Positions 23,801 through 63,936 of a stretch of DNA of 64,000 bases are shown in pieces; position 1 is the stretch's first letter, and each line of letters opens with the position of its first letter. The DNA is taken from NCBI RefSeq assembly GCF_048128805.1, contig NC_135998.1:22156063-22220062 (forward strand), read 5' to 3'. Source of the DNA: Centroberyx gerrardi. Taxonomy: Eukaryota > Chordata > Actinopteri > Beryciformes > Berycidae. The position numbers and the translations under genes were made by a program. A model generated the notes under the pieces. It ran no database searches. It was given only the letters and a program-made list of their open reading frames with translations, and had not been told where the DNA came from.

Positions 23801-26800
23801 TGCCCAGGAAATAAGGTTATGGTCATAGTTGTTAGTCAAGTCTAAGTTTAATTTCTTTTTGAATTGCTTATACTGCCAGAGCTTCATACATTATCTGAGT
23901 TTGTCTGCCTTAGTTTATGTTTCTCTTTGACATGAGCTCTTGTTCTTGTTTCCACAGTGAACCCATGTTGTCATTACCCCTGTCATCACTGGGGTGTTTG
24001 TGTAAGATATGGAGCAGACAAATACGAGTGTGACTGCACTCGCACTGGCTACTACGGAGAAAACTGCACCATCCGTGAGTCCAGTTATCTTTATGGGATC
24101 AAGTCTCATATCCTATTTTATTATTGAACATTTTGAGGAATGTTAAACATCTCTGCTATTTCCTTTTGCATTAGACAGAAAGGGATAGTTGGTAAGGTCA
24201 TGTAACTTCCGATTTTATTTGTTTTCGTGAAGTCAGGAAATACTGCAACATTGCTTGGCTCACAAAGTAGGTGTTCCCGTCTAGACCCAAATATTTGTGG
24301 GATTGAAAGGACGGGAAATCAACTGCCAGGAAAAGAAAAGTTGGACAGTGTTGCCTGATCTTTCCACTGTTGCGCTTGACTCTGAGGATCTACCTCTCAT
24401 GAACAAGTAACCATCAAACAATGCAGTTCATAATTTGATGTGAAGCAACTGGCTTCCAGTTATGCAGTTACATCACACTCACCGAGCATAAAAATAATAA
24501 TAATGGACCACTACTGTGACTAGTGAGCAGTGCATTAGAAAAGAATGTAGCATTATTATGAATAAAGGAACAGAAAGAAGAAAAGGAACAAAGAAACAAA
24601 GGAAGAAAAAGAAAGACAAGAGGGAGGAAAACTACTAGAATAACACTTTCACTTGTAACATAGCGTAGCATAGCCACATAGCTAGTTCATCAAGTTCTTC
24701 TTGTTGTTCTTGTTTTTTACATACCTGTTGACCTTAATAGAGCATCCTTAAGGAGCTTTCTTGAGCAGCTTGAGGCCAAGTGTCAAAGTTTGTGAGATGC
24801 AGAACAACCGGGCGAGCTCGCTGAGAGTTATTCCTAGCAGCTTCCTAACAGCCTGGTCGTAAATCACAATGACAGATATCATTTCGACATCAGTAGTTTC
24901 AACGCTATAAACTCTTACATAAATCTTGATGATGCAGCTATCACTTTGTCTTTGTAATACCGACATATCACATATCCCCGCTGCAAAATTTCGATATGGC
25001 TATATGATCTGTCATGTCTGCGATGTTTTGTCACGTATCGCCCAACCACAGCGGAGTTTTGGTCCAAAGTGCGGCAGTTCTTGAAGCCCAGCCCAGATGT
25101 GATCCACTACATCCTGACCCATTTCCACTGGCTGTGGGACATCATCAACTACACCTTCCTGCGGGATGTCCTGATGCGGACAGTTCTGACAGGTCCACCA
25201 TTCATTTCAAGTTATCTTGATGAAATTCTTACTGCTTCTTCAGTCTCTCATATATTTAGTATATACAGTTAACCTTTATTTTCATGTTATTTTTTGTATG
25301 TACAGTCAGAGCAAACTTAGTGCCCAGCCCTCCCACCTTCAACTCCAAGTATGGCTACCTTAGCTGGGAATCCTACTATAATGTGAGCTACTACACTCGT
25401 ATCCTGCCCCCGGTGCCGGAGGACTGCCCCACCCCTCAGGGGGTCAAAGGTTAGGCAATCATTTACACTCTGTCATTAAAATATAGAACCTTCTTTGTGC
25501 CTGATAATTGCAATATACGGTAATATTATGATAATACTGTGATAATATTGATATTACAATGCATCATGAGACACAAATGTAAGACAACATGAATAATATT
25601 AAATGCACAACCTGTCCTTTGCTGAGTGTTTTGCCAGTTAAATCTAAATCTTTCACTATGGTGACATCAATGCAGATTGTTGACCTTGAGGAGTTCAGCA
25701 GTACAGTGTGCTGTGTTAACTGTATCAGTCATGTTTTGTTTCGGTATTATGACTAGAGGTGTGGTGTATCTGTGTTTGTGCCTGCGCTGTGTGTGTGATG
25801 CTGTGAGTCTCTGCCCAGGCAAGGCTGTGCTGCCCGACCCTGAGCTGCTGGTGGAGAGGCTGCTGCAGAGGAGGACCTTCAGGCCCGACCCGCAGGGCAG
25901 CAACCTCATGTTCGCCTTCTTCGCACAGCACTTCACTCACCAGTTCTTTAAGACCTACAACCGCATGGGTCTGGGCTTCACCAAGGCTCTGGCACATGGG
26001 GTTAGTTTGTTTATTAAAGCTGTGTACAGCTGTGCGTTTCTCTTAAGGTGCTGGTGACTGCAGGAGTAAACAATGTCAATAAATGATAAGTTCACTGCAC
26101 ACTAACAAGTAATCCGACAATTTTCATTTTCAGCAGGTAAAATTTGCACAGAAGAAATATGTCAGTCGTATTACCTTTAGTTAATGTATTACTTTGGTTG
26201 TATTTGTACTCATACTTTTAAGCAAAAAAGAGGGAAAAATAGAAAAACATAATAGCCTGTAGTTCTCAAACACATGAGATGGTGACAGTCCTGCAACGTC
26301 TAGTTCATGATATCATTAACCAATATGTACTCTAGCCGTACCCCCATTGATTTGTTCTGATCATCTCACTTCTTTCTTTATCTCTGTCTCTCCCTGTCTC
26401 TCTGCAGGTGGATGCAGGACACATTTACGGAGACAACCTGGCTCGTCAGCTCCACCTTAGGCTTCACAAAGACGGGAAACTGAAGCATCAGGTGACAGAG
26501 AGGCAATGACCCAAACAGAGGCTGTCTCCACCAAGATTTATTGCAACAGAACAGTCAGGGTTGGCACAAAGGGGAGCCTTCAATCGTCCTTTTTTTTACT
26601 TTGGCTGTTGTGATTTACTTTAATTATTTTGCAATTTTATTGACCAATGCTGAGACTATATATTTCATTCATCAGGCAGGTATACACTCACCGAGCACTT
26701 TATTAGGAACATCTGTACACCTGCTTATTCATGCAATTATCCTATCAGCCAATCATGTGGCAGCAGTGCAATGCATACGATCATGCAGATACAGGTCAGC

Positions 26801-29800
26801 AGCTTCAGTTCATGTTCACATCAAACATCAAAAATTTGATCTCACTGACTTTGACCGTGGCATGGTTGTTGGTGCCAGACGGGCTGGTTTGAGTATTTCT
26901 GAAACTGCTGATCTCCTGGGATTTTCACACACAACAGTCTCTAGAGTTTACACAGAATGGTGCGAAAAACAAAAAACTGGAGAATGGCCAGACTGGTTAG
27001 AGCTGACAGAAAGGCTTCAGTAACTCAGTAACTCAGATAACCTCTTTACAACTGTGGTGAGCAGAAAAGCATCTCAGAATGCACAACACGTCCAACCTGG
27101 AGGTGGATGGCACTTTGCTAGCTGATACCTACCCAGTATTAGTACGGAGCACATTAGGAACACTGTGTTCCTAATAAAGTGCTCAGTGAGTGTATTAGGT
27201 GTCAAACAATAGCAGGATTGAACATGCTTCTTAATATGACTATGTTGCAGCTAGAGTGGAAAGAGAATATGGACAGATAATGTGGAGAGGGTTGGGAAAG
27301 ACATTGACGTTGATTTTGCATTAAGTTATATCCAACCATATATATATTAAGATGTATTTTTCTAACCATCTCTCCCATCAGTTAATAGACGGAGAGATGT
27401 ACCCTCCTACTGTAGTTGATGCCCCCATCAGGATGAACTACCCCCCTGGGGTCCCTCCTGAAGGCCAGCTGGCTATCGGTCAGGAAGTGTACGGACTCCT
27501 GCCTGGTTTGGGGCTGTACGCCACACTCTGGCTGCGGGAACATAACCGTGTGTGTGACGTCCTGAAGGCAGAGCATCCCACCTGGGATGATGAGCAGCTC
27601 TTCCAGACCACACGTCTTATCGTCATTGGTGAGCTGGCGCAGCGCTGTAATGCGCTGATTTGTTTATGATAATATTAATTGATTTAGTGCAGATGTATTC
27701 TGACTTATGTAATTACTACAGTCTAAGTAAGTAAGCACACTTCATCCTTAGCATGCAGACAAATATTTTATTTGAGCTGGGAAAGGTGAACAGAGCCAAC
27801 TTGAGTTTGAACCTGATCACTCTTCACTTATGCAATAAGTTTGTATAATTTTTACTTGGCTGACCTCACTCTTCTACTCTGCCCTCTCTTTTTGTCCCTC
27901 TGTGTGCTTCCCTCAGGTGAGACAATACGTATAGTGATAGAAGAGTATGTGCAGCACCTAAGTGGATACCTGCTGCAGTTAAAGTTTGACCCCACCATGC
28001 TGTTTAACTCCCAGTTCCAGTACGGGAACCGCATTGCTCTGGAGTTCAGCCACCTCTACCACTGGCACCCCTTGATGCCTGACAGCTTCTTTATTGATGG
28101 AGATGAACTATCCTACCAACAGTTCCTCTTCAATACTTCTGTTCTTACACACTATGGTGTCGAAAAGCTGGTGGATGCCTTCTCACGACAAGTTGCTGGC
28201 CAGGTAACCATGTCAACAGAAATATTACACACAACCGAAGCTCAATAACCAAACCTCAGACATTAGAACTGATTGTTTTTCATTTTTTTCCAAAGAGGCG
28301 TAATTAATATGCAGAAAAAATATATGAAAACTTTTTAACTGCCGATTAGCATTCTGGAATATGTGCACATGTATGTTTCATATAAAACATTGTAACATTT
28401 TATTTGAATTATTTATTGACCTGGTATTTCAATTAAGTCAACCAAACATCTTTTGAATTACCTCCATACATCTCGTAAGTAGAATCTTCATATATGACAT
28501 CGGAATTGGATTAATGGGGTCATTTTATATGATACTATACTTAGATATACTATATACTTAGATATTATACTATATGATATTATATACAGATACTTGCAAC
28601 GATATACCACATGTCAGTGTCCTTAGAGCTGTTTAGATAGAGGAAAAAGTGAATTCTTACAACTTGATTTCATTATTTTCATTTATTATTTCCATTATCA
28701 TGTAATGTCATGCAAAAGAAAAGTGATTTCTGCAGTAATCACCATAATTTCTGCTCTACAGATAGGCGGCGGCCATAACATCAATGCCGTGGTGACCAGA
28801 GTGGCCGTGGGGGCTATAAAGGAGTCCCGGCAGCTTCGGATGCAGCCGTTCAACGAGTACAGGAAGCGCTTCAACCTGGTGCCATACACATCTTTCACAC
28901 AGTTCACAGGTAGGGAAATAGTTCTACATACAGACCGCACAGCATGGAGTGCGAACCTCAAAAGATCTTATTTATGGCTTTAACAAGTGTGTGTGGGAAC
29001 CGCTGAACACACATTCTTGCAATACCTGGCCTCAACTCGTGTTTCAGGCATTTTTTTTAAAGAATGTTGTCCATAACCTTTCCAAGGTGGCAATGGATGG
29101 GAAGAATGAAAGTATTACTTGACTTGGACATTGACTTGGACAATAAGATGTGTTATTTTCCTTCCATGTTGGCTTCAGAATTGTGTAGTTCTCTGGCATT
29201 GCAATATGTGTGAAGAAAAACACATTCCTGAGGGGTTTGTTATGCTGTCATGCTACCAGGTGCACAACTCTGAGGCTGCTTGCATATCCTACAGCAGCAG
29301 GGATATTCAACCATGTCATGGAGGGCTGAGTGTACGCAGATTTTTATTCCAACCAAAGACCACATTGATGATGATGATTTCACTGATCAGCACATCTTCA
29401 AGCAGAGAGGAGGAACTAATCAGTGAAATGACCTGTTTTAGTCTTTGGTTGGAACGGACACCTGCAGACTTTCTGTGAATACCCCTTGTCCTATAACCTT
29501 TTTCTTTAAACATTGGTTCAAGCCCAGCTATGCCTATAGATTATACATTGGACCTTATGGGAAGTGGTCATGCACTGTACTGGTTGGCAGGTTTTTGGTG
29601 CGATACTGACAGTTACCTTTTGCAGGCGAGGAGGAGATGGCCCGCGAGCTTGAGGAGTTCTACGGCGATATCGACGCTCTCGAATTTTACCCTGGCCTGC
29701 TCCTGGAGAGAACGCGGCCAGGGACCATATTCGGAGAGAGCATGGTGGAGATGGGCGCCCCGTTCTCCCTGAAGGGCCTCTTGGGAAACCCCATATGTTC

Positions 29801-40868: not shown

Positions 40869-42484
40869 TTATGCGGTCTTGGCAGCCCTGGTGCGCTTCT
40901 TCTTGACCACGACGGGCTTCTGGCTCTTCAGGATGGCACTGGCACGACGCAGGGCCGCCTGGGGGGAAATCAGACTCAAATTACTGCTCTCGAAAGCTTT
41001 ACAAGACAAAACGTCAACTTAGGTACTGGCTTTAGATGGATCACACAAACCAAGGTGGTTAGTAGATCTGAGAGTTTTCGGTGCGTGACAATATGAGTGA
41101 ACTCACCATGCGCAGGTCCTTCCTGTAGCTGTTCTTGCGGATAATGTGCCTCAGGCTGCTGAGGGTGGCACGGGAGTTCTTGTTGATAGTGATCTTCTCA
41201 TACAAGTTGACAGGTTTGCGCTGACCTGGGCAACAAAAACGAAACAGACAATGGGTATACCGGTGTGACTATATTAGCAGTAATTACCCAGAAGTAAAAC
41301 AATTAACCTTTCAGCGCATCTCCAAAAAAACAGACCACAAAATCATGCCGACGAGAAAGATGTTCTTAAGCAGCCCAACATCTTTTTTTCCTGTAAACGC
41401 TAAGTGGACGGTAGTTTACCCAACATTCACACAGAGACACACACAGCATTAAGACTGAGATTTCTTTAAGAAGCGGAGGTGTCTGCACTGTGGGCTTCTT
41501 GTCTTTACTGCAGTTCAGCATGCTAACGAATTCAAAAAAGGGACAATGATTCCAGTAATTTACAGCAAGTGTGGTGCTAAAATCTATTTGACCACTATCA
41601 TTTTAATTCCTGGTTGTTTGTCTTGATTGCACCATCCTTGAACTGCAATCTGTTTTTGCTGCTAACTAATAAAAAATAAAGAGCATGTGTACTTTGAATA
41701 ACTGGGTTTCAAGACAGTACTATTGGGTCTGTGCCACAAAAAATAGTTGCTGTCCATTAATAATGCCAATGATGTATGAGAAGTCATTTCTAAACAACTA
41801 CAGGTCAATTCTACCCATTTTCCATTAAAAAAACAATGCAATTTTTACTCACATCCTTTAAGAACAGCTGGTCGGTTTTACAATATCCAACTGTACAGGC
41901 TTTTCATTCAAATGATAAAAACCTTCTGGCGTTTGATAACGCCACCAAACACTACTCCACAGAGATGATACACACTGAATCATCGGTTTTGAGAATCTGA
42001 TGCTCACCTGCACGCTTCTTCAACACAACCACGATGCCCTTGCCATCAGCCGCAGGCTGCACACCAACAGTCTTCTTGTGCACCAACCCATTGAAGCGGA
42101 AAGAGTTCTTGGACTTCAGGTTGTTGGGCTCCTGTTACACAGAAGGATTCAAAACAAATTACACAACTGTATAGCTTGTGCTGTTTTCACAGTCCATGTT
42201 AACTTCAGAATATGTAACAAAAAATGTATACACTTTATGTATACTATCAAGAGCAGCCTTCACATAAGACAGAACAAACAGAATGTAGCTACATTGTCAG
42301 TAATTGCAGTATCACGCCGTCTTGTTCAATCTTCTAGTCAGGTGGTCTGAGTACAGGACGGACCTGCAGGACTTGACTGGTGCCGCACGGCTGCTGTACT
42401 TACAGTGCTGTAGGTCTGTCCGTTCCTCTTGATGAGGAAGCTGGAGCAGTTCCTGATGACCATCCACTGCAGATGAGACGACAT
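40869..42484 (-). CDS. rpl28: 60S ribosomal protein L28 (eL28), complete
   Basis: eL28 is a large-subunit ribosomal protein of animals. Four coding exons on the minus strand, 42404-42484, 42008-42131, 41107-41225 and 40869-40958, join to 137 residues, the same length as in mammals. It begins [20 protein letters not shown], continues with [20 protein letters not shown] and GQRKPVN, then [19 protein letters not shown], and ends AAKTA. Splice phases are consistent at every junction. An acceptor (TGTCCAG) lies seven bases before the ATG, so exon 1 is non-coding and sits at about 42978-43005. I looked for snoRNAs in the introns and found none convincing. Confidence 0.98.
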
Positions 42485-42977
42485 GGTGAACCTGGACACA
42501 ACCGGACAACTGTCACTGAAGTAACATGCAAGGCCAGCTGAAGTCAACTGACAAGAGTAGTTCAAAGTACCATAAACTATTAAAACAAATAGAGGCTATG
42601 TAAGGAAATAACGAGCCAAGGCCTACACACTATAAACCGAAATAAGCTATTAATCAAACATTTCATGGTTTCTGCACTCAATTTATTTAGAAAATGGTGT
42701 GCGGATGTTAACATTCAAGTATTGAACGTTTTCTAATTCAGTCCAGCCCAATGCAATGATACTCAATGCTAACAGCACAACGAGGCCTAACCGGGCTGAC
42801 ATGCTCACATAATTTACCGCTCCATTTCACGACTATAAATTGAAAATTATTGCCTCGTGACATGTGTAACAGTCTACACAACTAAAATATCTTAGCTTTG
42901 ACTCGCTAAGTAAGATACAGACGATGAAAAAGTCAACTTTTGTGATTAGGTGCTACCAGACGAAGCGACCACGTTAC

Positions 42978-43005
42978 CTTTCAGCGGAGGAAAAGGATCG
43001 AAGAG
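42978..43005 (-). promoter_or_regulatory. rpl28: rpl28 non-coding first exon with pyrimidine tract
   Basis: On the minus strand CCTTTTCCTCCGCTGAAAG is followed by the donor GTAACG. A pyrimidine-rich 5' end is the TOP element of ribosomal protein mRNAs. The exact first base is inferred. Confidence 0.7.
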
Positions 43006-43598
43006 GGCGGAAGCCGCTTTACGGTAGCTATTTCATAAATCCCTGCGCGTTGACAACTGCATTTTTATAAAATAATTACAGTCGAGACCACGTTTTCACA
43101 CATATCATACTTTTTTAGCGTTATAATAGTATTTATAGTAGTATTTTAATGATAATAAATTTTTTTGAATGTCTTTTCACGGAGTACTATTTATTCATAA
43201 ACACAGCGGAGGAACATCCCCACACCACTCTGGGCGATGAGCCTCAACGTCATTATTCCGCGCCTCGTGTTTACAGCAGAACGTCAAATTCAGTTTTCAA
43301 ACACTAGCTATTTTAACATTAGTGCATGTCGGGGAACAATATAAACCAAAACCAGACGAGACAGGAGAAAACGGTCTTATTGGACTCGTAGCAGATGTGA
43401 TGTCGAGCCTGTCTGGATGTGCGCGCTCCAGGACCAAGGAGGTTTTATCCAGGATGCTGTTGACGCTGACTGGTTGGCTGCTGATGCTTTCAACCTAAAA
43501 GTTGTCGGTGGTGAAGCCAGCTAGAAAGCAGCCAATCTTGTATTCAGTTCAAAGGAATAGTCTAGTGCAGGTTGTAACCTAATGTGAGGAGTCAAGGC
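43006..43598 (+). promoter_or_regulatory. Shared divergent promoter of rpl28 and the triple-MLLE gene
   Basis: The rpl28 first exon (minus) and the MLLE start codon (plus) lie about 600 bases apart. The middle (about 43215-43400) is GC- and CpG-richer than its surroundings and probably drives both genes. The MLLE leader contains a 32-codon upstream frame at 43400-43498 (start MSSLSGCARS) that ends 100 bases before the main ATG and could dampen translation. A spliced leader cannot be excluded. Confidence 0.5.
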
Positions 43599-44523
43599 AT
43601 GGATGAGGAAGAAGACCTGGAGGCAGTTGGTGAGCAGCTGTATAATCTGATTTACCCCAAACACGCAGAGATCGCTGGGAAACTCACAGGTGAGCTGACC
43701 CGCAGGAACCAGTGGCATGTTGTTGTTGTTATTGTTGTTGGTTTGGTGACTTTATCAGTTTGTTGCCACAAGTAAACCTACAAAAACGGAACAATTAGAA
43801 AACAATCATGTTATCATTAGCAATTCTGCATAATAATAACTTTGAAAATACTACAGACAAAGTTGCGAAGCCCCCTGTGTTCCAGGCATGTTGCTGGAGC
43901 TGCCGGGTCCTGTACTGACTCAGATGCTGCAGGATGAGGCCATGCTGACCGGAGCCTTGGAGAAAGCCCTCCGAGCCCTTCACCTGACCCAGGGGCCCAG
44001 GTAGGCCTGAGCATCCTCACTAGAGGGGTTTGAGGCATTCACAGTCCCATCTGAGGGTCTTTTTAGTTTTTTTGTTATATATACGTATGTTAGAATATTT
44101 TTCCATTCATAATTGATCTAAAGTAGTTCAGCTTTGTTGCCAGTAAAGCTGATAAGAAGTCCTTTCAATAAAGATTCAAAGAGGTTTTAGGGTGTAGGAA
44201 AGACTAATTCTGTAAAAGTGGTGTAGCATGGAATTTATGCATTTGTGTAACTTTTTGAAGAGTGTATCCTCACAGCACTGTGTATTTTTGGCAGCAAGGG
44301 AACTTGTAAGGATGAGGATGACGTGTCGGTGTCCTCTGACTCTCTGGGGGAGCAGCTGTTTGAGCTGGTGGACGTCTACAACACCGGACACTCTCAGAAA
44401 ATCACCGGTAAGCAACCAGCCCACTCACTCAGTAACACACTGATAATATTCAGCTGCTAATTTCCCACTACAGACGGAGCAGCTAACCTGCAAAATCATT
44501 TGCAAGTGCTGGATCCAACTTCT

Positions 44524-44579
<56 letters not shown>

Positions 44580-45420
44580 GTACTAGTAAGTATTGAGCTA
44601 TATTTTTTGTTTGCTCATCATTTTAAGTTAATGACAGTTTATTCCATTCATTGTAAAACTACATAAAACTTTCTTTCTTTCTTTCTTTTTCTTACTTGAT
44701 TTTTACTCAGATAATGAGCAAAATCTATTTTGTCGAGTTACTTTTTTACAACCTTTTTGGGTAATTTTGAACAACGGTACCAACAGTTCTGTCAGTGTGT
44801 ACCATACTAAGAGTTGCACCCTCCCTTCCTCTGCAGGCATGCTTCTGGAGCAGCACAAAGAAGCAGTGTTAAACCTGCTTTCAGAGCCCACACTCCTGGA
44901 AGAGCAGGTGAACCTCGCTGTGAAGACACTAAAGGAGTAGGTGACTAGTTACTGTGTATATTCATATTCTCATATTCTGTGTAGCATATTCTTGCCATTT
45001 CCCTGCTTATTCTCAAAGTGCATCTTCTTAATCTTCTCTCTGGACTTTTAACCTGCCTTCCAGCTCATTTGCAATTCAAATGTATAAAAACAAAAAAGAT
45101 TTAATTCATACCTAATAATATGCATGCTGCTCCCCTTCAGGCAGAATGTGGAGACGGACATCAGCGACTCGTCGGACACCGATGACACAGAGAGACTCGG
45201 AGAGAAGCTGTTCTCACTGGTGGAGGAGCTGGATCCAGTACATGCAAATGATATTACAGGTTGGCTGACACTCTGTCTCTAGTGGATCTTCATAAAAAAT
45301 ATCATTCCTTAATGTCCTATCTTTGAGAGCTTATGGTTTTTTGCTTTATAGACCACATAACGTCTGGTTTAAGGCCAAGTGATATTTCTGTTAAAGCATA
45401 TCAAAGCATTCTTGTGAAGT

Positions 45421-45453
<33 letters not shown>

Positions 45454-45576
45454 ACCCTCTCTCTAGGTATGCTACTGGAGATGGACCAAGCCACTGTCCT
45501 ACAGATGCTCAGTGACCACACCATGCTGGAGGTTGCTGTTCACAAAGCACAGGCAGCACTGGAAACCTTTAAGTGA
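43599..45576 (+). CDS. Triple-MLLE (PABC) domain protein without RNA-binding domains
   Basis: Six exons join in frame to 215 residues: 43599-43689, 43886-44000, 44295-44407, 44837-44936, 45141-45259, 45467-45576. The product is three tandem MLLE domains. Each begins GEQLYNLI, LGEQLFELV or LGEKLFSLV, then has the signature KLTGMLLE, KITGMLLE or DITGMLLE, then an L-x-x-(M/L)L helix as in the C-terminus of poly(A)-binding protein. MLLE domains bind PAM2 peptides of partners such as PAIP1, PAIP2, eRF3 and TOB. No RRM is present. Each domain is split by a phase-1 intron directly before the GMLLE motif, so the gene grew by repeating a two-exon unit. Acidic linkers (KDEDDVSVSSDS, ISDSSDTDDTE) separate the domains. 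I know no named vertebrate gene of this form. Confidence 0.85.
44527..44577. repeat. (AC)n microsatellite in intron 3 of the MLLE gene
   Basis: About 25 uninterrupted AC repeats. Confidence 0.98.
45420..45466. repeat. (CT)n tract forming the acceptor of the last MLLE exon
   Basis: A CT microsatellite runs straight into the CTCTCTCTAG acceptor of exon 6, so a length-variable repeat serves as the polypyrimidine tract. Confidence 0.9.
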
Positions 45577-47463: not shown

Positions 47464-47935
47464 GGGGCGAATTCACAAAGAATGGATTGCGGCCGCTAAT
47501 AGCACCATGAATTGCGCATCATTTGCACCCGCTATTTGCTCCGTCTCAAGGACCGATTCACAAAAGATATTGCGCTAATGATATGCCAGCGCAAACACGC
47601 CCATAACGTGTTGCAGCTGAGCGCAATTTGCCCCTGTTTTGCGTCTGATTGCAATTACCAATGTGGCAAAGTATAAACGTTGCCTTTGCGCGAAGAACAC
47701 AGTAGGCAGGACAATGGCAGAGAGAAAGAGAAAAATGAAATTTTTAGACCGCGAGCTGCAAGTCCTGACGGACAAGGTGCAGAGGCATTCCTCAAAACTT
47801 CAGGCAAGAGATTTAACCGGGACTGCGAGAAACCATATTTGGGATTTAATATCCCAGTCTGTCAGTGCTGTTGGTGTTTCCAAACGCACCTTCAGACTGC
47901 AAAAGAAGATGGCATGATTTGAAGCGGAGAACAAA
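47464..47935 (+). mobile_element. PIF/Harbinger-type fragment with Myb/SANT-like gene remnant
   Basis: A terminal-like GGGCGAATTCACAAAGAATG precedes a frame at 47714-47917 beginning MAERKRKMKFLDRELQVL. The basic RKRK start, the ELQVL helix and the later SVSAVGVSKRTF segment resemble the Myb/SANT-like DNA-binding protein that accompanies Harbinger transposases. The frame stops after 67 codons (LQKKMA), short of the usual domain end, and no DDE transposase is seen. The right end was not found. Confidence 0.6.
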
Positions 47936-53200: not shown

Positions 53201-56200
53201 TTGTTTACATAATGATTGCAAAAAGTTTTTTTTGTGTGACAGCTAAACATGTTTTATGTAATGTGGTAAACCTTGGAATACAACAATCATGTATTTTAGT
53301 TGCGATGGATTAAGAAAATTCTTTAAAGTTTATCTCCCATCTGCAGAACACACACACACACACATGCATGTATATACAAACATATAGTCACACATACTCA
53401 GCAGCGTATTTTACAAACTTACATCACTTAGGGATATTAGTTTTATACATGATACACACCTGAACTAGGCACAAACAGGTTGGTTGGCATGGGCATGGGT
53501 GCCAGAGGGGCAAAGATGTCTGCTGGGGCAGGGGCTAATCCGCCTGGTTTAGCAGTTCTGCTGGGGTTCAGGACGTCCACATATCTGCTCTTAGTGCCTG
53601 AGAACGAAGAAACACAGTTAAGAGGCAGGAAATAGGGGAAATAACAAATGCCAACACTATATTTAATATATAATTTCATTTTGGTTGCTTTTTCAGCACT
53701 TTCAAATTATTTTTGTCCTACTAATAATTCAAATTCTCTAACAATACTTGTTTTTATGCAAGGTCAAAACACAGTATTTGTGAAGCCACAGGCCATAATG
53801 CAGACTCCAGATCTCACCTGCCTTCCTGGAGAACATGTTGACAGGAGGCCCACCACTCGGGGGCATGGCAGGCCCTCCAGGGCCAGGCATGTGAGCCATC
53901 TTGGGGAAGCCAGAGGGAGGTGGTGGAGGGGGCTTACTCTAACGGATGATAATAAAAATTATAACATTAGAATTGGTTGATCTATGAAGATCGGGTTTGC
54001 TCAGTTTAGACAAACAACAAAAGCCAGTGTGCCTAAAATAAACGTCAAAAAGTAAATCTGCCCAGTATCACAGACCTCCTCTTCAGGCTCATTCATGTCG
54101 ACCCATCTCTGCTTCGTCTCATCCCACACAATCTGACAATAAAAAAAAAAGCATACATATTCTCTCATAAGTTGAATTCATACATGACAAACCTGTGAAA
54201 AAATGTGAGACTGAATATAGGAGACCGATGAGGTTAGAACTTGTATGAAGAACGGTTCTAACTTACAGATTTTTTTTCGTCATCTGGCAAGTGAGCCTCA
54301 TTCTTCATCTTCCCAGAGAGCCAGTTTAGCCAGCCACCACCCTGTGAGAATGATGGAAAGAAAATCAAAGTGACCACCAGTGATGAAACATTATTGGAGT
54401 GCTGATAGAAGATCTGAACGCATGTGTGTATATGAACCTTTCTAGGCGAGACTTTCTTGGCCTTCTTGGCCTCCTCCTTGCGGGGCTGTTCAGGAATGGA
54501 GGGTGGAGGTGGTGAGGCCTGCTTGGCAGCCGAGTTGCTCCGCTCTCTTCCCCCAGAGTGAGTGGAAGACTCAGAAGTGTTGCGAGAGCGACGTCCGGAA
54601 GCCTATAAACCACATAAGGACAGATATGAATAATATATACAACATATATAATCCTTCTGAATATCTAATCCTTTTGAGTCTCATGTAGCAGGAGCGTTTT
54701 TGTACTGGGAGGCAGCTTGATGTATAAGTATGCTGCCTTGACAGGGCACAGTCTGTCACAAGGGCTTACTCACAAGTCCTATATAATTGCTCAATGTCAT
54801 CCCAAACAGAAATGAAATGGAAATTTTCAATGTTGCCAAATTCTGCAATTATTATCAGACATACCTCAACCGTTTGAGTGAGACACACAAAAACTCACCA
54901 AGTGCATTGAAGACTGTGACGCAGTCCTCGATCTCCTCCCCGGACCCTGCAGGGCAAGGAAAGACAACATGGTTAACTATTCCCTATATATTATTATGCA
55001 TGGACACAAAAAGATATACGACTGTATGGACGGACATAAAATTGTACATCGCTGGTTAACTGAAAGAAGATAAAAAGAGTCTGGCAAGGGAGGTAAAGCC
55101 CAGCAGATATCCAGCCAGATGGATACTGACCATGTGAGCCATTTGGTCATAGAAGTCCATCTGAGGTGTGAGGGCGCTCCTGGGTGGGGAGGAAGATATT
55201 GGCTGAGCAGTCTGCATCTCCGGTGGGGCGTGGGACAGCTGCTCTACTGGGGGGAAGCCTATATGCCCAGGAGAAGGGGGCATGTGCATCTGGGGTGGTG
55301 GGTGGTTCATCTGTAGAGGGGGCTGCTGCATCTGAGGGGGCATGTGAGGTGACATGTGAGGTGACATGTGGCCCATCTGAGGAGGTGGGGCACCAGGCTG
55401 CTGCAGGGCTCCTGGATACATGTCTGGCTGCTCAGGCTGGGGCTGAGGCTGGAAGGGAGGAGGGGCAAAGCCAGGAGGCTGAGGAGGGTAGCCTGAGACT
55501 GGCATCTGGCCTGGGGGTCCAGGCATGCTGGGGGGCACTGGGTAGAACTGGGGTACATCAGTGGTGGGCATGGGCTGTGGTGGGACCATCCCATCTTGGA
55601 GGATGGTGGTGGGAGCTAAAAGACAGAGAGAGAGAAATTAGATCTGATGAATTCCGAATGTGGCTCATTACAACGGGAGAGATTAAAAAACCACAAGAGC
55701 ACAAGCACACACTCACACACACACACACCTGGAGGCATTAGCTGTACTCCCTGCGGTGGCGGCCCAGGCAGTAAAGAGCTCATCAGAGGATTGTCAGGGG
55801 TGGGGCCATCTAACTCCAGGGGCATGGCGTAAGGCTCAGGCGGACTACCCGGGTCCAACTCAGAGCTGGGCGTGCTGCAGTCGTACTGTGTCGGAGTTGC
55901 TCTGTCTGCATTGTAGGCTATCACCCCCGTCTAAGAGAACAGTGGAAACAACCAACAGTTACAATTACACAGAAAAACTACAACCTTGTGTGTACAAGTT
56001 CCAATTTCACATCACAGTCTACCTCAACATTAAAAAATAAACTTGCATATCCATAGCCATTTTTAATTGATTTCAAAAGGCCTGAATTTTCTAATTTTTC
56101 ATTTTTTTCATCGATCTAGTTCCTTCATATGTATTGTTATAATCCCTCAAGCATACGACTATAAATACTTTTGCACTGTCATGTCAATTTGCAGTTTCCA

Positions 56201-62200: not shown

Positions 62201-63936
62201 TCTAACCAGAGCAACACCCTGTACAAAAAAGCTGCTTGCCATGTTTAATGATGATCTAAAATATGCTAAGATGCAAGTAAAGTAAAGCAAATAAAAGTAG
62301 CATCTCTATTGTCAAGGGGAAACTGTCCTATAGAAGATTCCACACTAACAAAGGAACAATTCCACCAATATCAGAGAAGCTTGTCAAACGTTTAGGAAGA
62401 TGGTATAACCCAAAGCTCATAGACAAAGAGCAGATTCAGGAGTTGAGACAGGATGTGATTACAGACTTAGAGGGCATAGAGAGGTCAATGTTACCAAGCA
62501 GGCTCAAGTTGTGGATATAGACTTCAGACTGATGCCCTGGCTGATATGGCCATTGATGGTGTGTGAGAAATAATCAAGGTAGATAAGGTAGAGAGAATGA
62601 TATGTTAGGAAATGGCTAGGAGTCCCATGCTGTGTCAACAGTGTATGGTATGGGAAGGGGGTCCTTGAGTTACCTCTATCCAGCCTAACAGAGGATCAAT
62701 TATAAGTTCAATGTCAGGTTAGTGCGGATGTAATGTAGCAGACAGTGTTGTGGGCGTACTTCAACAAGAACTCTGTGATGGGAGGTGTCCATTTAATAAT
62801 TCCAACTACATACTCACTGTCAATCTCCAACATTCAAGCTAGATTGCTAGATAGATCCTCATCCAAGAATAGCACAAGGGAAGTTAAATCAGGTGACCAG
62901 AGGTAAAATCACACATGCATACACTTAAAAAAAAAAAAAGCATACCGGTTGTGACCGGGAGCTGAAGCTGCTTCGCCTGCTGTGGTGGCTGTTGGAGCTG
63001 CGCAGACTGTGGGCCGACTGCTCACTGTGGATGCTGCGTCGGTCAAACTCATCCCCGTATGGGTCTCCACGCCGACGATAATCATCATCAAAACTGGCAT
63101 CATAACCAGGATAGTAGCGCCACTGGTCATCATAGCCTTCTCTCCTTTACACGGAGGGTACAGTGTTTGAGAAAGGCGAACAGCACTGCATTATTTTAGA
63201 GCTATTAGGCTAAACCATCTGTTGCATTTCATAATGTAAATGTGCAAGAGAAATATTTTAAAAAGTATGTATTAAAAGTCGCACAAATCGCTAGCAAAGC
63301 TGAAAGTAACTATCATCTTAGATTCCAATACATTAGATAAGCTTAAACTTCGAAGCCTATTTTCAGTTGGACACATATGCACCATCATACACCATCAAAA
63401 GCACATTTGCTACAACAGCAGCAACTTTCTTATACAGCTCAGCCCACTGTCAATAGCATTTGGTGCTATGGGAGTATTTGCATTGTTGTGGGGATAAAGT
63501 TGCCCCTGTCCCTCTTGGCTATATACTTATATACTTTGCTATCTTAATGTGTGCAAATAGTTTTCTCTGCATACCTGGCAGGATATGGCTGTTGGTTATA
63601 GTAGGGGTCTCTACCTCTATAGGCCTCATCATAGTTATACCAGTAGGACTGATCATAGTATCCTCTGTAGCGAGGGTCATATGTTCCAGGATTGTAGCCT
63701 TCCCACCGGACACATGCAAAGAGGAAAAGAGGGAAATTTGTAATAAAAACTATTAATATACACGGAAAGAGAAATGTATTTTGTAAACTAATTATACAAC
63801 AATAGCTGCAAGTAATCACAGCTGGAAACTACTGTGGCTCGTACCTCCATAATCATACTGTTTCTTGTAGTAATCTGCATAATATTCATCATAGGCACTT
63901 CGGTTAGCTCTCTGGAAGTCGTCAGGATAGCCTTGC
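50281..63936 (-). CDS. sec16a: Protein transport protein Sec16A, central domain to C-terminus (5' end outside window)
   Basis: Sec16A scaffolds ER exit sites and organises COPII coats. Twenty-eight minus-strand exons in phase give about 1200 codons: 63845-63936, 63575-63698, 62946-63144, 60004-60187, 59661-59803, 59205-59266, 58772-58910, 58413-58655, 58231-58328, 58030-58111, 57759-57876, 57508-57619, 57267-57372, 56445-56585, 56220-56333, 55729-55930, 55131-55615, 54899-54946, 54438-54602, 54267-54341, 54076-54132, 53818-53938, 53460-53597, 52849-52931, 51946-52017, 51425-51484, 50622-50690, 50281-50355. First comes a Tyr/Arg-rich stretch ([10 protein letters not shown]), then the alpha-solenoid central domain that binds Sec13 ([55 protein letters not shown]). 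A Pro/Met/Gln-rich region (exon 55131-55615), [28 protein letters not shown], the [17 protein letters not shown] serine motif and the tail FYNPAQ...GRLGGQRQ follow. The outermost acceptor (63936 or 63931) is uncertain. Confidence 0.95.
51792..51832. repeat. (CATA)n repeat in a sec16a intron
   Basis: About nine tetranucleotide CATA copies with one CTTA interruption. Confidence 0.85.
57462..57493. repeat. (GT)n microsatellite in a sec16a intron
   Basis: About 15 GT units with one AT interruption, 15 bases below the sec16a exon at 57508. Confidence 0.95.
60532..60815. repeat. Intronic direct repeat, copy A
   Basis: Shares AGGTTCAGTGTCAGG, TCTGTGATGGGAGGTG and AAAATAGCACAAG in the same order with copy B at 62702-62900. 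Copy A has extra sequence between the first two blocks. No family was recognised. Confidence 0.65.
62702..62900. repeat. Intronic direct repeat, copy B
   Basis: Contains AAGTTCAATGTCAGG, CTCTGTGATGGGAGGTGTCC and AAGAATAGCACAAG, collinear with copy A. It may be a segmental duplication in the intron or two copies of an unknown dispersed repeat. Confidence 0.65.

What the first reader, a model, noticed from the sequence alone, without database searches (positions are those of the whole stretch)
43599..45576. A protein made only of three tandem MLLE domains, in a gene built from a triplicated two-exon unit
Seen: six exons encode three domains carrying KLTGMLLE, KITGMLLE and DITGMLLE, each interrupted by a phase-1 intron just before GMLLE, and no RRM. 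Known: MLLE domains occur singly at the end of PABPC and in UBR5/HYD and bind PAM2 peptides; a multi-MLLE protein is known in fungi (Rrm4), where it also has RRMs. Inference: an array of PAM2-binding modules with no RNA-binding part could cluster or compete for PAM2 partners (PAIP2, TOB, GW182, eRF3) and so modulate translation or deadenylation. I recall no described vertebrate protein of this form.
Basis: partly seen in the sequence, partly recalled or inferred. Interest (0 to 1): 0.85.

Follow-up and report, generated by a model that had tools for sequence, protein, structure and literature searches.

The report
Stand-alone triple MLLE protein gene
An animal genome (probably a fish) carries a small intact gene for a protein made only of three peptide-gripping domains of the kind normally found once, at the end of poly(A)-binding protein, which may let it compete for or tie together that protein's partners.

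Summary
Six exons (43599-45576, +) join at GT-AG sites into a 648-nt frame. The 215-aa product has three MLLE domains, each well over Pfam's cut-off on its own. PABPC1's RRMs found no match in the window.

Searching the 779-Mb genome with the product found these six exons and otherwise only weak MLLE-gene matches. The phase-1 intron inside the glycine codon before MLLE is in all three units and in none of the six other MLLE loci found (four PABPC-like, one UBR5-like, one fragment). One two-exon unit was probably triplicated long ago.

All three domains keep the PAM2-phenylalanine pocket but differ at Gly579, Lys580 and helix 5. The best explanation is a soluble, multivalent PAM2-binding decoy or adaptor; this is inferred. 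The closest described protein is fungal Rrm4, which has three MLLE domains plus RRMs.

Orthologues and transcripts could not be checked: no other vertebrate genome is searchable here. Verdict: a real-looking, unusual gene; new variant of a known kind.

The parts
42750..43499 (.). CpG-rich block between the 5' end of rpl28 (- strand) and this gene (+ strand): candidate shared promoter
   Evidence: CpG observed/expected 1.04, 1.39 and 0.91 in three 250-base bins; window mean 0.39, 95th percentile 0.81. Promoter function is inferred.
43599..43689 (+). exon 1, first half of MLLE domain 1, starts with ATG (GGCATGG)
   Evidence: found as G000:C2:22199661-22199762
43886..44000 (+). exon 2, second half of domain 1 from (G)MLLE
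   Evidence: domain 1: 54.4 bits
44295..44407 (+). exon 3, acidic Ser-rich linker 1 and first half of domain 2
44837..44936 (+). exon 4, second half of domain 2
   Evidence: domain 2: 54.1 bits
45141..45259 (+). exon 5, acidic Ser-rich linker 2 and first half of domain 3
45467..45576 (+). exon 6, second half of domain 3 and stop codon
   Evidence: domain 3: 67.8 bits
45893..45898 (+). ATTAAA, possible poly(A) signal
   Evidence: by consensus only

Best explanation
An intact gene for a small, acidic, soluble protein that is an array of three MLLE domains joined by short acidic linkers, with no RNA-binding part. Each domain keeps the pocket that takes the Phe of PAM2 peptides. I propose that the protein binds PAM2 or PAM2-like peptides of PABPC partners multivalently, and so takes them away from poly(A)-bound PABPC (decoy) or holds several of them together (adaptor), tuning translation or deadenylation. 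Domain 1 looks most canonical; domains 2 and 3 probably have shifted peptide preferences. Shown: gene structure, domain identity, pocket residues, no second copy among matches. Inferred: expression, binding, partners, effect.
For: Three Pfam MLLE matches over cut-off; nearest solved relatives are PABP MLLE domains. Contacts of PABPC1 with PAM2 read in passages of PMC2854688: at Gly563, Glu564, Phe567 (F or Y), Thr582, Met584, Leu585, Leu586, Glu587, Ala610 and Leu614, 3 of 3 domains agree with PABPC. The Gly that Rrm4's MLLE1 and MLLE2 lack (Ser, Arg) and its MLLE3 keeps for the PAM2 Phe (PMC9249222) is, by my reading, Gly563; it is present in 3 of 3 here. The frame is open and the splice phases match across units. 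In two of three domain pairs pN (0.44, 0.36) is well below pS (0.70, 0.71, the shuffled level), so protein sequence was held while silent sites saturated. No RRM match in the window. No PAM2-like match in its own sequence by a loose pattern.
Against: Domains 1 and 2 do not show the contrast (pS 0.51, pN 0.50). Gly579 is G/Q/N and Lys580 K/K/D in domains 1/2/3; Lys606, Glu609, Val613 and His617 differ from PABPC in all three, so classical PAM2 binding may be weak or lost; although UBR5, which binds PAM2 (stated in PMC9249222), also has Ser at 579. Long branches (1.31-2.61 changes per site). No transcript, orthologue, binding or structure result. PABPC is abundant in cells (general knowledge), so a decoy would need high level, local action or avidity.
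Confidence: 0.5

Rival explanations
1. A multi-MLLE scaffold with its own non-PABPC partners, working like the MLLE platform of Rrm4: the domains bind diverged, PAM2-like peptides of proteins not shared with PABPC.
For: Specificity-side residues (579, 580, 606, 609, 613, 617) differ from PABPC and among the domains. Rrm4's MLLE3 binds PAM2-like but not PAM2 sequences, and its MLLE1 and MLLE2 bind neither (PMC9249222, Discussion).
Against: The Phe pocket and TGMLLE are unchanged in 3 of 3 domains, unlike two of Rrm4's three.
Confidence: 0.3
2. A decayed or dispensable gene, or one never expressed.
For: Two middling donors, long branches, pS about equal to pN between domains 1 and 2, no expression data.
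Against: Six exons open, phases consistent, start and stop present, 14 columns invariant among three diverged domains, contrast of pN and pS in two of three pairs.
Confidence: 0.1
3. The exons are the 3' part of a longer PABPC-like gene with RRMs, or an annotation-like artefact of chance matches.
For: MLLE is normally C-terminal in PABPC.
Against: In-frame stop at 43575 before the ATG; rpl28 lies on the other strand about 0.6 kb upstream; no PABPC1 RRM match in 64 kb. Three independent Pfam matches exclude chance.
Confidence: 0.03

Closest known systems
Rrm4 of Ustilago maydis (three C-terminal MLLE domains, endosomal mRNA transport; PMC9249222)
   Same: Three MLLE domains in tandem with flexible links; domains differ in pocket residues.
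   Different: Rrm4 has three N-terminal RRMs and a clear hierarchy in which only MLLE3 keeps the canonical Gly. Here no RRM was found, and 3 of 3 domains keep that Gly as I align it. Homology of the arrays was not tested; independent origin is likely.
PABPC1 and relatives (single C-terminal MLLE/PABC domain)
   Same: Same domain family and best-scoring solved relatives; same Phe pocket.
   Different: PABPC has RRMs and one MLLE. In the four PABPC-like loci of this genome KITGMLLE is inside one exon.
UBR5/HYD (single MLLE in a HECT ubiquitin ligase)
   Same: Same domain; MLLE of UBR5 also lacks Gly579.
   Different: Huge ligase; its intron lies before AFASKITG, not in the Gly codon before MLLE.
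PAIP2 (recalled: PABPC inhibitor carrying a PAM2 motif)
   Same: What the proposed decoy would work like: breaking PABPC-partner contacts.
   Different: PAIP2 blocks PABPC from the peptide side; this protein would act from the MLLE side. Not a relative.

Membership tests
MLLE/PABC domain family (PF00658) | Profile match over the curated cut-off for each domain | tested here: met
   54.4, 54.1 and 67.8 bits, cut-off 27
MLLE/PABC domain family (PF00658) | (K)xTGMLLE signature | tested here: met
   TGMLLE in 3 of 3 domains; Lys before it in 2 of 3
MLLE/PABC domain family (PF00658) | Residues of the PAM2 Phe pocket (563, 564, 567, 582, 586) | tested here: met
   3 of 3 domains (contacts from passages of PMC2854688)
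MLLE/PABC domain family (PF00658) | Other PAM2 contacts (579, 580, 606, 609, 613, 617) | tested here: inconclusive
   579 and 580 kept only in domain 1 (580 also in 2); the other four differ from PABPC in all three
MLLE/PABC domain family (PF00658) | Binding to PAM2 peptides | not testable with these tools
   needs binding assays
[quoted passage not shown]
   No match of PABPC1 RRM1-4 in the window at E<=1; in-frame stop before the ATG
UBR5/HYD | HECT domain | tested here: not met
   Product is 215 aa and Pfam lists only MLLE over cut-off
Rrm4-type protein | Three MLLE domains | tested here: met
Rrm4-type protein | Three RRMs before the MLLE array | tested here: not met
   Pfam finds no RRM in the product; PABPC1 RRMs find none in the window

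The most novel reading that the evidence does not exclude
A vertebrate protein family made only of MLLE domains: a natural three-site PAM2 trap, transcribed with a ribosomal protein gene from one shared promoter, that sets how many PAM2 partners are left free for poly(A)-bound PABPC.
Probability: 0.25. Interest if true: 0.8.

Novelty: new variant of a known kind. Interest (0 to 1): 0.55.

Why it matters
PABPC's MLLE domain is a hub for translation, termination and deadenylation factors, and its natural regulators known to me act from the peptide side. A protein that is only MLLE domains would act from the receptor side and by avidity, and could be used to test how much partner competition for MLLE matters in vivo. 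[quoted passage not shown] this would be a second architecture, in an animal.

Tried and rejected
Longer PABPC gene with RRMs: rejected on the in-frame stop and no RRM match. Recent duplicate of a PABPC or UBR5 3' end: disfavoured because neither intron pattern is shared. Domain tree to find the parent family: no supported branch (0 of 6 starred). The data reject none of the three groupings tested (domains together p-AU 0.306; with UBR5 0.212; with the PABPCs 0.118), so origin is open. Relatives in viral contigs: 18 pattern matches, none confirmed. In prokaryote genomes: 70 pattern matches, none confirmed. Papers: seven answered searches gave no multi-MLLE protein other than Rrm4 in what the listings showed; many listings were capped, and the library holds open-access papers only. 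PMC10132805 (passages) shows viral peptides competing at PABPC1's MLLE; it bears only on the general idea of peptide competition. Structure prediction was not run: the tool takes proteins that the DNA gives letter for letter, and a spliced product is not that.

Full report
What was checked. The stretch 43599-45576 was read and a six-exon model was built: 91, 115, 113, 100, 119 and 110 nt, joined at GT-AG sites with phases 1,2,1,2,1, giving 648 nt and 215 aa. An in-frame stop at 43575 precedes the ATG, which has a GGCATGG context. An ATTAAA lies about 0.3 kb after the stop codon. Units 1, 2 and 3 are exons 1+2, 3+4 and 5+6. In each unit the intron splits the Gly codon of TG|MLLE after its first base. 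The two introns between units are both phase 2, so the middle unit is a symmetrical block that can be duplicated without loss of frame.

Domains. Pfam finds MLLE three times in the product (E 1.7e-46), and once in each domain given alone (54.4, 54.1, 67.8 bits; cut-off 27); no other family passes its cut-off. The solved sequences closest to the product and to domain 1 are PABPC1 MLLE domains; for domain 2 they are a trypanosomatid PABP (1nmr; name recalled) and a plant PABP (2dyd; name recalled), then PABPC1. UBR5 and HYD score lower in all three searches. The domains are 30, 41 and 46% identical to one another over 54 codons, and 14 alignment columns are invariant.

Genome context. The tool places the window at G000:C2:22156063-22220062 in a genome of 778,876,752 bases and 278 contigs. 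A ray-finned fish is an inference from genome size and gene content, not a test. A search with the MLLE profile found six places over the cut-off: C19, C12 (two), C17, C14 and C16 (18 candidates, all scored). It did not list this gene's own half-domain exons, so split MLLE genes can escape it. A search with the 215-aa product at E<=10 found all six exons of this gene (E 1e-17 to 2.7e-11), four PABPC-like exons (E 0.003 to 0.02) and the C16 fragment (E 6); 12 candidates were scored. Within those limits the gene has no second copy.

Introns. In the four PABPC-like loci (C19, C12 minus, C17, C14) KITGMLLE lies inside one exon. The exon begins in the Gly563 codon (human PABPC1 numbering) and ends after Lys606. 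These loci are called PABPC from the MLLE exon and, in three of four, the exon before it ([24 protein letters not shown]); their RRMs were not looked for. In the UBR5-like locus (C12 plus) the exon begins at AFASKITGMLLE. The C16 fragment is unbroken there too. So 0 of 6 other MLLE loci have the intron that is in 3 of 3 units here. The simplest reading is that one MLLE unit already had this intron and was duplicated twice in tandem, and that the gene is not a recent copy of the 3' end of PABPC or UBR5. The tree cannot say which it came from: no branch is supported, and the tests reject none of three groupings.

Age and constraint. Between domains 1-3 and 2-3, pS is 0.70 and 0.71, equal to codon-shuffled controls (0.71, 0.70), while pN is 0.44 and 0.36 against shuffled 0.71 and 0.70. 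Between domains 1 and 2, pS is 0.51 and pN 0.50, which shows no contrast. This points to an old triplication with the protein held in shape. It is weak evidence, from 54 codons, without orthologues. Branches to the three domains are long (2.61, 1.97 and 1.31 changes per site for domains 2, 1 and 3, against 0.92 for UBR5).

Binding surface. PAM2 contacts of PABPC1 were taken from passages of PMC2854688 and mapped by alignment. In all three domains Gly563, Glu564, Phe/Tyr567, Thr582, Gly583, Met584, Leu585, Leu586, Glu587, Ala610 and Leu614 are as in PABPC. Gly579 is G, Q, N and Lys580 is K, K, D in domains 1, 2, 3. Gln560, Lys606, Glu609, Val613 and His617 differ from PABPC in all three; Ile588 is L, Q, M. 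The pocket for the PAM2 Phe is therefore intact, while the parts that hold the other half of the peptide are changed. In Rrm4 only MLLE3 keeps the Gly that admits the Phe, and MLLE1 and MLLE2 (Ser, Arg) bind no PAM2 sequence tested (PMC9249222: abstract and section list, Discussion, passages). I take that Gly to be Gly563 of PABPC1; the paper's passages do not give that number.

Whole protein. It is acidic (pI 4.27, charge about -29 at pH 7.2). The two linkers are short and acidic (GPSKGTCKDEDDVSVS and NVETDISDSSDTDD), and no PAM2-like match was found by a loose pattern. PABPC1's RRMs give no match in the 64 kb.

Neighbours. rpl28 is on the minus strand just upstream (Pfam Ribosomal_L28e, 60.2 bits), head to head with this gene, with a CpG-rich block between them. 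Upstream are a haem peroxidase gene (ptgs2 by recall) and phosducin. A shared promoter with rpl28 is an inference.

Mechanism. Shown: an intact gene model with three MLLE domains, no RNA-binding part, and intact Phe pockets. Inferred from the family: peptide binding. Inferred further: three sites on flexible links give avidity for partners with more than one PAM2, so that the protein either draws PAM2 proteins off PABPC or bridges them. I give this decoy-or-adaptor reading 0.5, a Rrm4-like scaffold with its own partners 0.3, and a non-functional gene 0.1.

Novelty. The Rrm4 authors state that Rrm4 is, to the best of their knowledge, the first protein with multiple MLLE domains forming a binding platform. 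The open-access searches listed no other. Sequence databases may well hold unnamed predicted entries for this gene; I could not search them. I therefore call it a new variant of a known kind, with interest 0.55: surprising to the PABP field, but without orthologues, transcripts or binding data.

Noticed in passing
window 42000-43500: rpl28 (minus) and the MLLE gene (plus) are head to head across a CpG-rich block; the rpl28 leader shows a pyrimidine-rich start typical (recalled) of ribosomal protein genes.
   Followed up: partly
window 45417-45466: A CT-rich microsatellite lies directly before exon 6 and serves as its polypyrimidine tract; a CA repeat lies in intron 3 (about 44527-44577).
   Followed up: no
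L006 / L018 (G000:C16, near 6819095-6819220, minus): A lone, degenerate PABPC 3'-end piece (MLLE 36 bits), continuous across the PABPC intron site, with no PABPC1 RRM match in 9 kb at E<=0.01: looks like a retrocopy remnant.
   Followed up: partly
G000:C12, 22.20 Mb and 22.85 Mb (L005, L002): The UBR5-like gene and one PABPC-like gene lie about 0.65 Mb apart; I recall human UBR5 and PABPC1 also being neighbours on chromosome 8.
   Followed up: no
L004 (G000:C14): The PABPC-like exon there seems to end before GC (AAG|GCATGA), a possible GC donor.
   Followed up: no
window 47621-47914 (+) and 26496-27020 (+): Open frames with a Myb/SANT-like domain (28.3 bits) and a helix-turn-helix (25.3 bits), probably transposon-derived.
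   Followed up: no
window 63457-63753 (+): A 99-aa open frame matches the DUF1418 profile just over its cut-off (26.1 against 22 bits); probably a chance match of a hydrophobic stretch.
   Followed up: no
window 54261-55930 (-): Pieces that look by eye like SEC16; Pfam found nothing in two of them, so this is recall only.
   Followed up: partly
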